Shown here: in pieces, positions 57,166 through 63,415 of the stretch
Layout of the letters: the number at the start of each line of letters is the position of its first letter
How positions within the stretch are numbered: position 1 is the first letter of the stretch
NCBI RefSeq assembly: GCF_024713945.1
Contig: NC_134683.1
Span: 2,729,501-2,793,500, forward strand
Direction of reading: 5' to 3'
Source: Dermatophagoides farinae
Taxonomy: Eukaryota > Arthropoda > Arachnida > Sarcoptiformes > Pyroglyphidae
Length of the DNA: 64,000 nucleotides
Translations under genes and position numbers: made by a program
The notes under the pieces: generated by a model
Database searches by the model: none
What the model saw: the letters and a program-made list of their open reading frames with translations, nothing else
Told to the model about the DNA's origin: nothing

Positions 57166-57928
57166 TACTTTTTTTTCATTTTCTATTTCACTTTGATTGA
57201 TCAAACAAACAATTTGTTTTTAATCTGTTTTTTGTTTTGTTTTATTTTTCATTTTTTTTTTATTTATTTATTTTTGTTTTTTTTTGATAAATTCTTAGGA
57301 TCCTTGAATCCCCTTTATTTATCACAAATTTGATATCGGAATCCTCATCTGTTGCTTTTGACCAAAAAAAACAAGAATTTATAAACCCGCACCTGTGATA
57401 TATAAACCAATATAATTGTAACAAAAAAAAATTTAGTAATTATCATTGTGTTTAGATTCGTTAACTGTAGATGGCGCTATGCTGTCCATTTTTTTTAAAA
57501 TAAAATTAAACTGAATGAATAAAGGAAGCAGGCCCGAGCCGCGCCATTGTGCAGGATGTGCGCCGCACAGTTTCATAACTCATTTTCCTGTGTGTGTGTA
57601 TGGCGTGTACACGACGTGTTCAGGAAACGGAACAGCTATCTTGGTCGATTTTTTTTGGTGGTTTTTTGGTGAGAAAATCACGTAAAGTAGTAGAATTAAT
57701 CATTAAATAATATTTCAATAATAATTTGATTTTTATTCAATCTAAATTAGCATTATTTAGAATTTAATTTATTTTTAGTTGTTAAAATCCCATACATGAC
57801 AGGAAAATTGTTTTGGATTCTGTATTATTTACTAGATCGTTGGCAATCATATTTGACCTGTCCAAAAAAAAAAAAAAAAAAATTATGACGAATGATTAAA
57901 ACTTGTTATTCAAGCTGAATGAAATAAA
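57166..57928. other. Convergent 3' region between rdgB and the envelope-like gene
   Basis: About 760 bp with T-rich 3' UTR sequence, a CTCF-like word at 57468-57479, a GC-rich block at about 57530-57650 that stands out from the AT-rich surroundings, and an A18 run near 57865. No gene is seen; the block marks the change from gene-bearing to element-bearing DNA. Confidence 0.5.
57468..57479. promoter_or_regulatory. CTCF-like motif TAGATGGCGCTA
   Basis: The 12-mer matches the core of the animal CTCF site in the form seen in flies (AGATGGCGCTA). It lies between the converging rdgB and envelope-like genes, where an insulator would be plausible. A one-base variant lies at 13995-14006. Binding is inferred from the motif alone. 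Confidence 0.35.
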
Positions 57929-59782
57929 TCAATAACATAACATATCGAATGTTCCACGATATTCTTTTTGTCCATCCAGTCGTCTAGTAGTTTCTCTATA
58001 TTCTCGTGCCCGATGTTTCTTGATTTTTTTGTACCGATAGATGATATATGCAATATACGAAACCACCAAGATGACTAGGATGATCCCCCCAGCTGTCATG
58101 AAGTATGACATTGTCTTAGAGATATATGAGGCAGCAATCCTTGATAGCAGCTTGTTTTCAACATCTATCAGTGTTTCTAAATTCTTGAGGCTGATGTCTG
58201 ATTTATCTGGGTCAAACACTTTTTCGTTTACATAATCCGAAACATCAGTCTCTAACACCGATAGTGTTCCCAAACGGAAGCTTTGTACCAGGACGGTTTG
58301 TCCGTTTATGGAGATGTTAGTTCCCCGCTTTTGTTTATAAATTTGGTTTAGGCAGGGTGTTGGATGTTCTCCAATTGTCAGGTTCTGGGAATAACAATAA
58401 TAGTAGACAAAGTCATGGTCCCATTTCAATTGTACCACTTCTTCAGGTATCAATGTTTCTGGACTTTCACATTTTACTTGTCTCCATTTTACATTCGCAG
58501 TTTTTATTGGAGTTTTGCACAATTCCGAATGGAATAGTAATAGTGTTTGATGATCTCCTATAGGGTTGTAAGGAATTTCTCGGAAGCATTTGGTTTTCTG
58601 ATTAAAGACAATGTATTGTGGCCCCACGTATTCTGAGATGCATATTTCTGTTTTTGGCTTAAGCATTGCGTTGGTCTTTTCCTCCCGAATAATATAGAAC
58701 GGATCGGCTCGTAAAAGATTGAAATCTGGGTCCATTTTGATGCCATTTATACATAGGACAAGTTCATCGGAATTGGTCATTATGTCTTCTTTCAATATAC
58801 ATCCTTCCAATGACCAATACTCATCCGGTGCCTCTGGTCCCAATAATATATTATGGAACAAATCTTTCAACTGCATGGCTAGATGTTCATTGTCTGGTTG
58901 AAACATTTGTTTGATGGTATTCCCCACTTCGGTGAACCTTCTCGTTATTGTATTCATGACCGTAATTTCCTGGAGTCGATGTTTCATTTCCATATTTTCT
59001 TGGTGCATCTTGGTGAGGACTTTTAGAAATTTCTTATTTATTTGGTTTTCTATTTCCTTATATGCCAGGTCGTTTCGTTGCCAGGACATTTGGTCATTAG
59101 GATCGTGGAAGTAACTGACTAGGCCAATGGTTGCTGTCAGCCTGATCTCTAATTTTACCGTTTTGTAGACGAAACTAATAATTCCACGTTTTTGAATTCC
59201 ATGACCAAATTCATCTGTCATTTTTGTTGGACAAAAATGTCTCAATGGTCGGATGATTTGTTGTATATATCTTTGGAAGCATTGTTTTCGATTGTATTCG
59301 TTTAGAAAATGAACCGCTTCCGTTTTATTGAAGCTTAACTTGTCTGTTGTAAAATTATTAACAACAGTTTATAATTGAGAAATGAATTTTGATTTTAGAA
59401 CAATTTCAAATAATTTTAAAGAATTTATTTTATTTTATTTTTTTAAATTTAAAAGTTGGTCAAATGTTTCACACAGAGAAGAAAAAAAAACTTAACATAA
59501 AAAAAACATTAAAAAAAAGAGACAAGAAAAAACATTCACGTGTTTTTTCTTTTATAATATTTTTGTTCATAAATGAAGTTACATTTTTTGTAACATGTCG
59601 ATTATTTTGCATGGATTTTCTAGTTTTATTTTAACATCGGCCTGAACGACTTGTGTAGCCACATGATGACTGGACTTGTTCCAGATGACTGGATACCCAA
59701 GACGATCGGATTGACAAACATTATTCATACTAAATAGGATGATGGACCAAAATATGATCGTGTTAATATGTCGTAATGCCAT
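57929..59782 (-). CDS. Viral-envelope-type membrane glycoprotein gene (endogenous, origin uncertain)
   Basis: The main open frame runs from about 59343 or the 59333-59368 area to the stop at 57929. Its first ATG is at 59245 (438 codons), and the open frame continues about 33-41 codons upstream. A separate 67-codon frame at 59579-59782 starts with a signal peptide (hydrophobic TIIFWSIILF, then VCQS) and probably is the first exon; a GTAACT donor lies at its end. The main part has a furin-like KR followed by a hydrophobic stretch at residues 19-25. Then come a heptad-rich helical segment (about 58-100), many cysteines, sequons NLT and NIS, one transmembrane helix (about 380-403) and a basic 35-residue tail. 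This layout fits a class I viral fusion glycoprotein, as in gypsy/BEL-type retroelements or arthropod chuvirus-like insertions. I cannot place the family. No gag or pol lies beside it. The best splice site does not preserve frame, so the exon joint is unresolved. Confidence 0.6.
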
Positions 59783-60184
59783 GATTCACTAAGAATTTCA
59801 GAAACAAACAAGAAAATTATTGATAGTACAATAGTGTTGATCACTAAAAATTTTTGGTTCGGGATAGATGAATGTCGAAGTTTTATGATTTAGTAGTAAA
59901 GAAAATTTGATTCGATGAAAAATACAATGATGAAGTTTAAACAAGTTGCAGTTTAATTTATAGGAAAATCGCATATACAGCAAGTTTTTCCAGAATAAAA
60001 CCATTATTACAAATGACATATAACCAACAAGTTTTGACCAGATGTCAATGACTAAATCGATAAACAAATGGATCATTTCTGATAAATATTTGTGTTAATT
60101 TTTTTCCAAAACGTTATTGTTGATGTTTATTTACAAAGCAGCAAATGAGAATTTCCCAGAATAAAACCGTGAGGGAAGCTTTAA

Positions 60185-60350
60185 TCGTAGAGACAATCGG
60201 TGTAAGCAATCTCACCAATCCACTTTCCGACAATCTTTCACGACAGTTGACCATGAATTTACAGGAAAAAAAATATTGGGCACATATTTAATGTGTAAAT
60301 TTTTCCTAAAATATTCATGTGAAAGAGGAGAATTGATCGAAGAGTCCCAA
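60185..60350. repeat. Direct repeat, copy 1 (166 bp)
   Basis: This segment recurs 586 bp to the right with only two or three differences (for example TTGGGC versus TTAGGC and CATGTGAAAG versus CATTTGAAAG). After the match, both copies run into AGTGACAGTG-like sequence; copy 1 has an extra 18-bp tandem unit there. It lies 400-570 bp upstream of the envelope-like signal-peptide ATG. Confidence 0.92.
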
Positions 60351-60625
60351 ATTGAGAGTGCCAGTGAAATTGAGAGTGACAGTGGTTGATTTTTACTGTA
60401 TAAACTGTCACACACCACCTGTAGCTGAGATTAGGGTCGCACTACAGACTCACGACCATTACAATAATAATAATAATAAATTATCTCTAAATTTTTCACC
60501 ACAAGAACACCACACCAATACTTATACACAGGGCACAACATTAATATTTCTTTAATGCAATTATTTTTCATCGGTACAAGAGTCTTCGGACTTGGTGCCA
60601 TTTAAATTTTCAAATAAAATTACAC

Positions 60626-60720
60626 TAATACCTCGATATACGGCCTAGTTACGTTCCACGAAACTTGGCCGCAAAGCGAAAAGCTGTATAAGGAATCAAT
60701 TATTCTAATACGGAAATTCA
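60626..60720. mobile_element. Possible end of a DNA transposon (pogo/Tigger-like terminal sequence)
   Basis: The stretch starting TAATACCTCGATATACGG, followed by GTTCCACGAAA and GCAAAGCGAAAAGCTGTATAAGGAA, resembles the terminal sequence style of Tigger/pogo elements (ACCTCG..., GGTTCC..., GCGAA blocks). No inverted partner or transposase is seen nearby. This is pattern resemblance only. Confidence 0.25.
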
Positions 60721-60770
60721 ATAAATTTTGTGGGATCGGTTCCAAAGTAACAAAAGTTACAAAAGTAACA

Positions 60771-60936
60771 TCGTAGAGACAATCGGTGTAAGCAATCTCA
60801 CCAATCCACTTTCCGACAATCTTTCACGACAGTTGACCATGAATTTACAGGAAAAAAAATATTAGGCACATATTTAATGTGTAAATTTTTCCTAAAATAT
60901 TCATTTGAAAGAGGAGAATTGATCGAAGAGTCCCAA
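60771..60936. repeat. Direct repeat, copy 2 (166 bp)
   Basis: The partner of the repeat at 60185-60350. The near identity shows a recent local duplication or two insertions of the same small element. The ends are not TG...CA and no inverted repeats are evident, so it is not clearly an LTR pair. Confidence 0.92.
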
Positions 60937-61366
60937 AGTGACAGTGATTGATATATAGTTTATTATTGACCTTATATCGATTTTTAATTGAAACAAATTA
61001 AATGATTAAACTATTTTGAAAATCGACTTGTGGCCAAAACTTTTATTCAGTGTTGACAGATGTCGCTTTCCAACGGTTGAATTTAAACAACTGTTTTAAC
61101 AATCGCGGGCTTTACTGCACAAATCCAAAATTTGTTAATACACAATGCAAGTACATGCAGGGTGTAAATGCTGAATTTCATATTCAAAAATTAATTTTGC
61201 GCAGTTGTTTTGACTAAATTGATGAAAATTGCTATTGTTGTTATTAGAAAATTTTTAAGGGAAAATTTCTGAAATTCACTCAAAATGCACTCACAAAACA
61301 CTCACTGTAACTAAAACTGGAACTTGTGAAGCGTATATACGAGTTTTAACCCACATTGCCCCCTGC

Positions 61367-61527
61367 ATACTTACCTGGCGGGGTGATCGGGTTCTCAAGC
61401 AAACCCGGCACCGGGTGGAGTCTGTGCCATTGCACTTCGGCACGTGATGAAACCCGCCACTGGTCCAAAATGGATCAGATGGCTCGTGTAATTTTTGGTA
61501 GCGAGGTTTAGCGTACGCGCTGACCTC
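61367..61527 (+). ncRNA. U1 small nuclear RNA gene or recent copy, with divergent stem-loop I
   Basis: The 161-nt segment begins with ATACTTACCTGG, the U1 5' end whose ACTTACCTG pairs with 5' splice sites. Helix H is formed by GGCGGG and CCCGCC. Stem-loop II carries the U1A-binding loop ATTGCACTTCG closed by GTGCC/GGCAC-type pairs. Stem-loop III (ACTGGTCC...GGATCA) follows, then the Sm site in GTAATTTTTGGTAG, and a final hairpin GAGGT...ACCTC around GCGTACGC. Length and order match animal U1 (about 164 nt), and the Sm-site block resembles the fly gene closely. Stem-loop I folds well (CGGGTT/AACCCG), but its loop is CTCAAGCA rather than the usual GATCACGAAG that binds U1-70K. A TATATA word lies about 30 bp upstream. 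Identity is firm; whether it is the working gene or a variant/pseudogene is open. Confidence 0.9.
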
Positions 61528-61587
61528 TTCCTTTTATAAAATTGAAAAAAGGGTGCACAAAAAACAAGTCATTATTGACAAATTACC

Positions 61588-61645
61588 CACTGGTGGCATG
61601 GGCGCCGACAGGGGGTGCAAGTAGGTGCATGTGCACCCCCTAGCT
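61588..61645 (-). mobile_element. Terminal end of the hAT element, with a 9-bp hairpin
   Basis: The sequence CACTGGTGGCATGGGCGCC at 61588-61606 has the style of hAT terminal repeats (CAGTGGC...GGGCGCCG). Just inside, GGGGGTGCA (61611-61619) and TGCACCCCC (61632-61640) form a perfect 9-bp hairpin with a 12-base loop. This is taken as the 3' end of the transposase relic to the right. The matching left end is missing. Confidence 0.5.
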
Positions 61646-62945
61646 TTTGAAAAAAAGAAAATGGAGAAAAAAAATAAATCTTTCAATAATAAGAAAAAAC
61701 GCGAAAAAATAGTTTGAATTTTAAATTTTTAAATTACAATTAGACATTTACATTTTACAACTTATTTTCTAAAAGAGCAACTCAAGCCTTCTTTTTTGTT
61801 GTCCAAACTTGTCTACAACTTTGTCGATAAAATTTGGACAATTATTTATTCTTTTTTTGTGTACACTAAGCATACATAATCCACTTAGTCTATCGTCACT
61901 CATTGTAGATCGGTTCCAAGTTTTGACGCGCCGTAATGTGCTAAAAGATCTTTCAATACTGCAGGTTGTTGCAGGAAGTGTCATGCCAATCTTGAGTGCC
62001 TCGGAAACAGCCGGATAAAACTTCGTAGCCTCTTCAATTAAACTCATGCAATCGGTAATTTCGTTCGCAATGTTTTTATTTTTCCACATCTCATACCATG
62101 TGGTAGCGTCGGATATAAAGTTTGGAAGAATATCACCATACAGACTGTTAATGTCTTCCAGAACTGTTAAAAACGATGACTTGTCCAATTTACTCATTTC
62201 TTTTGGGTGAAGTTGTAAAAGTGAAAATGCTTTCTCTTGTGTAGAAGAATACCGAATTTGTAGAGGAAGATATTATAGAATCCAAATAAGGGATGAAAAT
62301 GGATCTCCTAAAATATTCTTCTGCGTTTTCAGAAGGTAAATTCGATCTGTGAACTTGCCTTTTATTTAACCGTGGCTGTTTTAATTCAATGTCTAATTCT
62401 TCACAAATCGATTGTTCTTTTTTGAAAATCAATGAAAACTCTTCAGAAACATTGTCTCGATGGGATTGCAGCACATCTGTTGATTGAATTATATGAGCAG
62501 TTACATCTTTAATGTTCATATTTACTTGCTGCAACTGATTGCACACAGATTCGAGTTTAGCCGAATAAGTAGCAATTACTAAAAGCGTCAAAATGTAAGT
62601 TGGAGTTGTGATAGCAGTGAACAGCAAATGAGCCTTGACCTTTGTGTTTTTGTTCGCACTGTCCTCTGTAAGCTTTTCTAGCGCTTGGACAATTACCAAA
62701 AAGTTCTCAGAAAATATTCTGATACTTTTATACTTTGCCGACCAACGTGTTTCACAAGAATCAAAGATCGTCGTAAAGTGCTCTCTCTAAAAAAGTTGAT
62801 TACTTCCTTAGTTGTGCCACTGGCATTTTGAACTTCTTTGACATTGTTCAAGTCATTAATGACGAGATTCAATATATGACTGGCACAATGAAAATACAAA
62901 GCCTTAGGGTGCTTGTCTCTGATAAGCTTCTGAACACCACTTTCT
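61591..62945 (-). pseudogene. hAT-superfamily transposase relic, truncated and frameshifted
   Basis: Three overlapping minus-strand frames make one transposase-like protein. The leading part, about 62790-62945, contains KLIRDKHPKALYFHCASH and ILNLVINDL. The middle, 62250-62785, contains DSCETRWSAKYKS and continues to IPYLDSIIS. The C-terminal part, 61769-62260, has the hAT dimerisation block TTCSIERSFSTLRRVKTWNR and MSDDRLSGLCMLSVHKK. Frame changes near 62780 and 62250 break the reading. The N-terminal zinc finger and first catalytic part are missing because the copy is cut at about 62945 by LINE sequence. The type is that of the TTF/ZMYM- and THAP0-like (52-kDa repressor) hAT proteins common in arthropods. 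It is inactive as read. Confidence 0.85.
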
Positions 62946-63415
62946 TTACAAAGGGATGATTCGTCCTGCTATCACGTATGGTTATCAAATTTGGGGTGAT
63001 AAACTAATTGTCAAAACAAAAAATAAGCTTAACTCAATTCAGCATCATATTTTATTAAAATCAATTTATGCATATCAAACGGTTTCATGCAATATTGTCT
63101 GTATTCTCAACAACGTCGAAAAATTAACTGATTACATTGATTCTTCTCTAATTACGTACAAGATTCAAGACAAGGTTGTTAGGAAAATTATTATGGCTAT
63201 TCGGAAGAAACAAATTATTAAAAATTATTTCAACGATGTAAACGACAATTTCAAAAGCTACTTTCCCACATCGCAAATCCCAAAATTCTTCAAGCCTAAT
63301 TTCTACAACGTACAGTTTATTACAGGTCATGGTCATTTCATGAGCTACCTTCACCGAATTAATGTTAAACCAACTCCCGCTTGTGAATGCGGTCACAGCT
63401 ACCAAGACCCTAATC

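What the first reader, a model, noticed from the sequence alone, without database searches (positions are those of the whole stretch)
57929..59782. Intact envelope-type glycoprotein gene without gag or pol
A minus-strand reading frame of over 430 codons has a furin-like KR before a hydrophobic segment, a heptad-rich helix, sequons, one transmembrane helix and a short basic tail. A separate signal-peptide frame lies 236 bp upstream. No gag, pol or flanking LTR pair is visible. An unbroken frame among decayed elements suggests either recent arrival or selection to keep it (domestication of a viral fusion protein, as with syncytin-like or Iris-like genes). The source family could not be named.
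Basis: partly seen in the sequence, partly recalled or inferred. Interest (0 to 1): 0.75.

Follow-up and report, generated by a model that had tools for sequence, protein, structure and literature searches.

The report
Broken endogenous retrovirus envelope gene
This is the leftover envelope (cell-entry) gene of a Ty3/gypsy-type endogenous retrovirus, cut in two by a small mobile-DNA insertion and with a second broken copy about 93 kb away, so it looks like a fossil rather than a viral gene the animal kept for its own use.

Summary
The reading frame is real: 479 codons stop to stop on the minus strand, one transmembrane helix, plus an N-terminal frame upstream. It is an envelope gene: 13 other loci in the genome match at E<=5e-5, one more only weakly, and one homologue lies 81 bp behind a Ty3/gypsy-order pol frame. 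'Intact' is wrong. The gap between the two frames is a 251-bp inserted element with TG...CA ends and a 4-bp target duplication, missing from a second, inverted copy about 93 kb away. That copy is broken too: 19-bp deletion, nonsense codon, ~648-bp insertion. Coding differences (12 synonymous, 22 nonsynonymous; ratio 0.47, Fisher p = 0.05; neutral simulation P = 0.12) give at most a weak hint of constraint. An open frame at this divergence is expected by luck about half the time. Domestication of this copy is not supported. The idea fits C3:3162044-3163915 better: a single-copy 624-codon envelope frame among host genes. In passing: a pol-less gag-protease-envelope LTR element lineage with recently moved copies.

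The parts
57929..59344 (-). Envelope gene, larger part: dibasic site, helical heptad region, Cys-rich ectodomain, one transmembrane helix, basic tail
   Evidence: Open frame; homologous to frames or fragments at 13 other loci at E<=5e-5, one more at E 0.05; hydrophobicity, Cys and sequons. Heptad region is by eye and from a low-confidence model
59345..59595 (-). 251-bp inserted element, solo-LTR-like (TGTTAC...ACAACA, AT-rich), splitting the envelope frame
   Evidence: Absent from the second copy; relative at C1:1065923-1066190, 82%; that copy shows no clear target duplication
59341..59344 (.). Target duplication of the insert, one side (GACA)
   Evidence: Present on both sides here, once in the second copy
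59596..59599 (.). Target duplication of the insert, other side (GACA)
59596..59782 (-). Envelope gene, N-terminal part: signal-peptide-like start (by eye; below my hydrophobicity cut-off) and the conserved IW...H.VA motif
   Evidence: Frame; tblastn match of the C5 envelope at 59600-59746, 41% over 49 aa; motif in relatives
57571..63085 (.). Part of the window shared in pieces with an inverted second copy at C7:2.879-2.885 Mb, which carries the other broken envelope

Best explanation
A dead env gene of a Ty3/gypsy (Metaviridae), errantivirus-like endogenous retrovirus. In the living element this gene would encode a signal peptide, a short N-terminal subunit, a basic cleavage site, a hydrophobic segment, a helical heptad region and a C-terminal anchor, that is, a class I-like fusion protein that carries particles into new cells (inferred from the parts and relatives). 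Here env has been separated from gag, pol and LTRs, was duplicated within an inverted segment, and each copy was then broken separately, the window copy by a small LTR-like insertion. Most likely it makes no functional envelope. At most it yields transcripts or small RNAs as part of a pile of transposon fragments 3' of a PITPNM-like host gene. Shown: homology, insertion, duplication, breakage. Inferred: class I mechanism, lack of product, small RNAs.
For: 24 tblastn rows, which I group into 15 loci including the window (limit E<=10, 14 of 15 loci at E<=5e-5). The C5:1142453 env (29%) and a frame with protease, RT (E 1.2e-31), RNase H and integrase are 81 bp apart on one strand. At C5:4.893 Mb integrase and env share one frame. 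Insert with target duplication, empty in copy 2. Copy 2: 19-bp deletion, nonsense codon, ~648-bp insertion. Substitutions: env 34 in about 1,580 bp (2.2%) against flanks of 1.7, 1.5 and 3.0% and 0.6% in the hAT part. Neutral simulation over 34 changes: 12 synonymous observed, 8.5 expected, P = 0.12; 1 stop observed, 1.5 expected. Larger part alone: 10 of 32, expected 7.8, P = 0.24. P(no stop) after 16 neutral changes 0.47.
Against: Nei-Gojobori ratio 0.47 (12 synonymous, 22 nonsynonymous, Fisher p = 0.050; one search gave 0.49 and p = 0.055 with one spurious difference from insert bases): a weak hint of constraint. No small indels in the 1,418 bp of the larger part, against 8 events in about 2,600 bp of flank and hAT, some of them in simple repeats. 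No gag or pol was found beside either C7 copy, so env probably stood alone before the duplication. No Pfam or PDB family convincingly matches the protein, so the F-type/class I label rests on architecture and gene context.
Confidence: 0.85

Rival explanations
1. A domesticated envelope gene (Iris/syncytin-like) still in use at this locus, with the 251-bp insert removed as an intron.
For: Long open frame, no gag or pol found, pairwise ratio 0.47 with Fisher p = 0.05.
Against: The gap is an insertion with a target duplication, absent from the second copy and from four relatives. The second copy is broken three ways. Synonymous excess is not significant in simulation (P = 0.12; P = 0.24).
Confidence: 0.05
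2. A formerly domesticated, stand-alone envelope gene that has lost its function: the unit was captured without gag and pol, duplicated on C7 (with older fragmented relatives on C6), and is now eroding.
For: No pol was found beside either C7 copy. The C6 clusters, up to 55% identical by fragment, are env fragments whose nearest listed integrase match is 24% identical and about 10 and 7 kb away. The genome holds another stand-alone env frame at C3:3.162 Mb. Pairwise ratio 0.47.
Against: Env-only remnants also arise by deletion and rearrangement; the C6 region is rearranged with several inverted arms. No test of past selection was possible without other species.
Confidence: 0.09
3. A host membrane glycoprotein family unrelated to viruses.
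For: No viral Pfam or PDB family matches convincingly. One relative (C5:4.893 Mb) weakly matches Prominin (E 5.9e-4, 18.5 bits, curated cut-off 34.3) and Commissureless (E 0.0043).
Against: Those matches are below the cut-offs and in one of 8 members. Homologues lie directly behind retroviral-type pol, in one frame with integrase, or in one frame with gag-protease between identical terminal repeats.
Confidence: 0.01

Closest known systems
Errantivirus (insect ERV, gypsy/gypsy clade) F-type Envelope
   Same: Third gene behind a Ty3/gypsy pol in the homologue; basic cleavage site, conserved cysteines, one C-terminal transmembrane helix. The published feature list was read as passages of PMC12992720.
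   Different: No match to Pfam Baculo_F (PF12259) in the lists shown or in the genome, where the control was silent too. The window copy lacks a canonical furin site and is broken.
Iris and other domesticated envelope genes (Drosophila Iris; vertebrate syncytins)
   Same: Envelope frame without neighbouring gag or pol. Iris is known here only from a reference entry seen in PMC4276936 and from recall; syncytins from recall.
   Different: The window locus has no intact gene and no clear sign of selection; both C7 copies are broken. The C3:3.162 Mb locus fits the description better.
Jingchuvirales glycoproteins captured by arthropod retrotransposons
   Same: Envelope genes integrated in arthropod genomes (PMC10084718, listing and start of abstract only).
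   Different: Not tested directly; I did not check whether Pfam holds a model for them. No such family was returned by the Pfam scans.

Membership tests
Errantivirus-like Ty3/gypsy endogenous retrovirus env | Env gene downstream of a Ty3/gypsy-order pol (PR-RT-RH-IN) on the same strand | tested here: met
   Met for the homologue at C5:1.142 Mb and for integrase-env at C5:4.893 Mb; not present at the window copy itself
Errantivirus-like Ty3/gypsy endogenous retrovirus env | Sequence match to the F-type family (Pfam Baculo_F) | tested here: not met
   hmmscan of 8 env members at E<=10: not among the 25 of 32 families shown, nor in the lists; PF12259 against the genome none, but its control also rang nowhere
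Errantivirus-like Ty3/gypsy endogenous retrovirus env | Signal peptide, R-X-K/R-R cleavage site, hydrophobic segment behind it, C-terminal transmembrane helix | tested here: inconclusive
   TM met in all 5 frames examined; canonical site only in C3:2.716 Mb (RKKR), dibasic in the window; segment behind the site passes my threshold in 2 of 4 relatives and not in the window; window signal peptide by eye only
Errantivirus-like Ty3/gypsy endogenous retrovirus env | Class I fusion fold | tested here: inconclusive
   Single-sequence AlphaFold2 model pLDDT 36.8, pTM 0.21: unusable; no fold search made
Errantivirus-like Ty3/gypsy endogenous retrovirus env | Spliced env mRNA | not testable with these tools
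   No RNA data
Domesticated envelope gene (Iris/syncytin type) | Intact open frame including signal peptide | tested here: not met
   Split by a 251-bp insertion
Domesticated envelope gene (Iris/syncytin type) | Selection since capture, across species | tested here: inconclusive
   Only a within-genome pair: ratio 0.47, Fisher p = 0.050, simulation P = 0.12; no other species available
Domesticated envelope gene (Iris/syncytin type) | Expression | not testable with these tools
   No RNA data

The most novel reading that the evidence does not exclude
The C7 pair and the C6 fragments are remains of a stand-alone envelope gene family once used by the host. The genome still carries a working member, the single-copy 624-codon envelope frame at C3:3162044-3163915 between host genes, which would be a captured viral fusogen in this animal.
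Probability: 0.1. Interest if true: 0.65.

Novelty: new member of a known kind. Interest (0 to 1): 0.3.

Why it matters
It corrects an apparently intact, possibly domesticated envelope gene to a duplicated fossil broken in both copies, and it names the source. It also shows a divergent envelope family, unrecognised by Pfam in these scans, attached to Ty3/gypsy elements in this genome. That family points to two better targets: a stand-alone full-length envelope frame on C3, and an element lineage with recently moved copies that keeps gag, protease and envelope but has no polymerase.

Tried and rejected
Intron between the two frames: rejected as an ancestral intron, because the stretch is an insertion with a target duplication, empty in copy 2. 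Haplotype artefact for copy 2: judged unlikely, since both copies sit on one contig in opposite orientation with different insertions. Phage relatives: none. Relatives in viral contigs: 8 stretches matched a pattern, none confirmed. PDB by sequence or profile: nothing credible (best E 0.17 and 0.054). PF12259 in the genome: no match, control silent, so uninformative. AlphaFold2 on the window frame alone: pLDDT 36.8, not used for a fold search. The 177-bp direct repeats upstream (60184-60360, 60770-60946) as an LTR pair: not supported; copy 2 has one, and beyond it only weak matches (about 65%) were seen on C6. LTR pair in the 9.5 kb fetched at C5: none of 80 bp or more seen, but the stretch does not reach the 5' end of the pol frame.

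Full report
OBSERVATION. The minus-strand frame is real and beyond chance: 479 codons from stop to stop at 57929-59368, or 438 from a TTG. In 200 random 64-kb sequences from a first-order Markov model of window 57500-62500, the longest stop-free frame averaged 152 codons and never passed 274. The upstream frame 59579-59782 also exists. One transmembrane helix is clear (residues 425-443), followed by a basic tail; 11 cysteines and 4 sequons were counted. The cleavage site is dibasic (IQKR) and lacks the R at P4. No hydrophobic segment behind it reaches my threshold in the window copy; it does in 2 of 4 relatives (C5:1.142 Mb, C5:4.893 Mb).

WHAT SPLITS IT. A second copy of the region lies about 93 kb away on the same contig, inverted (C7:2882351-2884580; 97, 99 and 89% for its three pieces; 91-99% by piece over the wider region). 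In that copy the N-terminal part runs directly into the rest. The window carries 251 extra bases (59345-59595), beginning TGTTAC, ending ACAACA, and flanked by GACA on both sides; the second copy has GACA once. A relative of the insert lies at C1:1065923 (82%) and shorter matches lie at C6. This is the signature of a small mobile insertion, most like a solo LTR, although the C1 relative shows no clear target duplication. The last residues of the upstream frame and the first eight of the downstream frame, including one sequon, are insert sequence. Four relatives (C5:1.142, C5:4.893, C3:2.716, C3:3.162 Mb) read through this region without interruption, so no ancestral intron is expected.

THE SECOND COPY. 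It lacks the 251-bp insert but has a 19-bp deletion in the N-terminal part, one nonsense codon, and a ~648-bp insertion in and around which lies a 178-codon frame with no convincing Pfam match. Both copies are broken, by different events, which places these events after the duplication.

SELECTION. Between the copies the coding region, insert bases excluded, differs at 34 positions (12 synonymous, 22 nonsynonymous over 525 codons; dN 0.0178, dS 0.0379, ratio 0.47, Fisher p = 0.050). A first count (12 and 23, ratio 0.49, p = 0.055) held one spurious difference. Flanks differ by 1.7, 1.5 and 3.0%, and the hAT part by 0.6%. Simulating 34 neutral changes with the observed transition share gives 8.5 synonymous changes against 12 observed (P = 0.12) and 1.5 stops against 1. 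The larger part alone gives 7.8 against 10 of 32 (P = 0.24), and 16 neutral changes leave it open with probability 0.47. The larger part has no small indels, against 8 events in the flanks and hAT part, partly in simple repeats. So there is a weak hint of constraint, perhaps from before the copies parted or from one of them; the open frame itself needs no selection to explain it.

WHAT IT IS. tblastn with the window frame finds 24 rows, which I group into 15 loci including the window, in the 62.4-Mb genome (the weakest locus, on C2, has E 0.05). At C5:1.142 Mb the homologous env (29%) is 81 bp from a frame with protease, RT, RNase H and integrase in Ty3/gypsy order. At C5:4.893 Mb integrase and env share one open frame. 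At C3:6.84 Mb broken integrase and env pieces adjoin. So the source is a Ty3/gypsy endogenous retrovirus. None of the 31 integrase rows lies near the window locus (capped candidate list), and the C5 pol frame has no match in the window. Pfam gives no convincing match for the envelope family; the best weak ones are Prominin and Commissureless in one relative, below cut-off. PDB searches give nothing credible. A single-sequence model is too poor to use.

COMPARISON. The passages I read in PMC12992720 describe errantiviruses as Metaviridae with a third gene for an F-type Envelope carrying a signal peptide, furin site, fusion peptide, conserved cysteines and transmembrane domain. They cite Chary and Hayashi 2024 for errantiviruses in many non-insect invertebrates; that work was not seen. 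PMC4276936 (passages) gives the gypsy layout and lists Iris as an env-derived host gene in its references. The present envelope works like these by architecture and gene context, but the sequence-family test was not met, so I call it errantivirus-like.

WHERE THE DOMESTICATION IDEA FITS BETTER. C3:3162044-3163915 carries a 624-codon envelope frame (664 stop to stop). Its other matches in the genome are 24-32% identical. It lies between an ion-channel gene, an unnamed gene and a DSCAM-like gene, with no repeats of 60 bp or more in 10 kb and no match there to the pol frames I tried. No selection or expression test was possible. Other env lineages here are low-copy too, so single copy alone proves little.

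IN PASSING. Two loci on C3 (2.716 and 4.781 Mb) carry gag, protease and envelope fused in one frame of 1437 or 1407 codons, with no RT or integrase domain found by Pfam. They are identical over the last 2,859 bp, 98.8% over the 1,884 bp upstream (2 mismatches, one gap), and each has 231-bp terminal repeats that are 100% identical. They probably moved very recently; a clear target duplication could not be read in the TA-rich flanks. A sister pair on C2 and C4 (1005-codon frame, 24 nucleotide differences) has a similar gag-protease join (shared ESQIKK, by eye) and a shrunken envelope that still matches the C3 one (E 7e-19 and 4e-11), again without RT or integrase by Pfam (one of the two was scanned). 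Gag-protease divergence between the pairs gives dN 0.33 against a near-saturated dS of about 2.1. This looks like a lasting polymerase-less lineage kept under constraint, presumably moved with polymerase from elsewhere (inference); it deserves its own study.

Noticed in passing
L054 4041-6035(-) = C3:3162041-3164035: Single-copy, full-length, stand-alone envelope-like frame (624-664 codons) between ion-channel, unnamed and DSCAM-like genes; no pol match among the frames tried and no repeats of 60 bp or more in 10 kb. A domestication candidate.
   Followed up: partly
L016 and L017 (C3:2714348-2718370, C3:4779383-4783405) with L063, L064: Gag-protease-envelope in one open frame, no RT or integrase by Pfam, two copies identical over 2,859 bp with identical 231-bp terminal repeats: a polymerase-less element that probably moved recently.
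   Followed up: partly
L061, L062 (C2:1595175, C4:3997147): Sister pol-less elements, 1005-codon frame, gag-protease 56-57% identical to the C3 pair, envelope shrunk but still matching it.
   Followed up: partly
window 57571-63085; C7:2.879-2.885 Mb: Inverted segmental duplication about 93 kb apart on one contig, 91-99% identical by piece.
   Followed up: partly
window 60184-60360 and 60770-60946: 177-bp direct repeat (98%), single in the second copy; the window-only 409 bp between them holds segments about 80-92% like several other loci.
   Followed up: partly
L035 (C6:4346001-4355500) and C6:4.368-4.388 Mb: Rearranged region with tandem and inverted fragments of a related envelope, up to 55% identical, mirrored at a second place on the contig.
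   Followed up: no
window 61769-62757(-): hAT transposase remains: the C-terminal dimerisation domain at 61769-62197 matches Pfam at E 5e-10. Copy 2 differs by only 0.6% here, less than elsewhere in the duplication.
   Followed up: no
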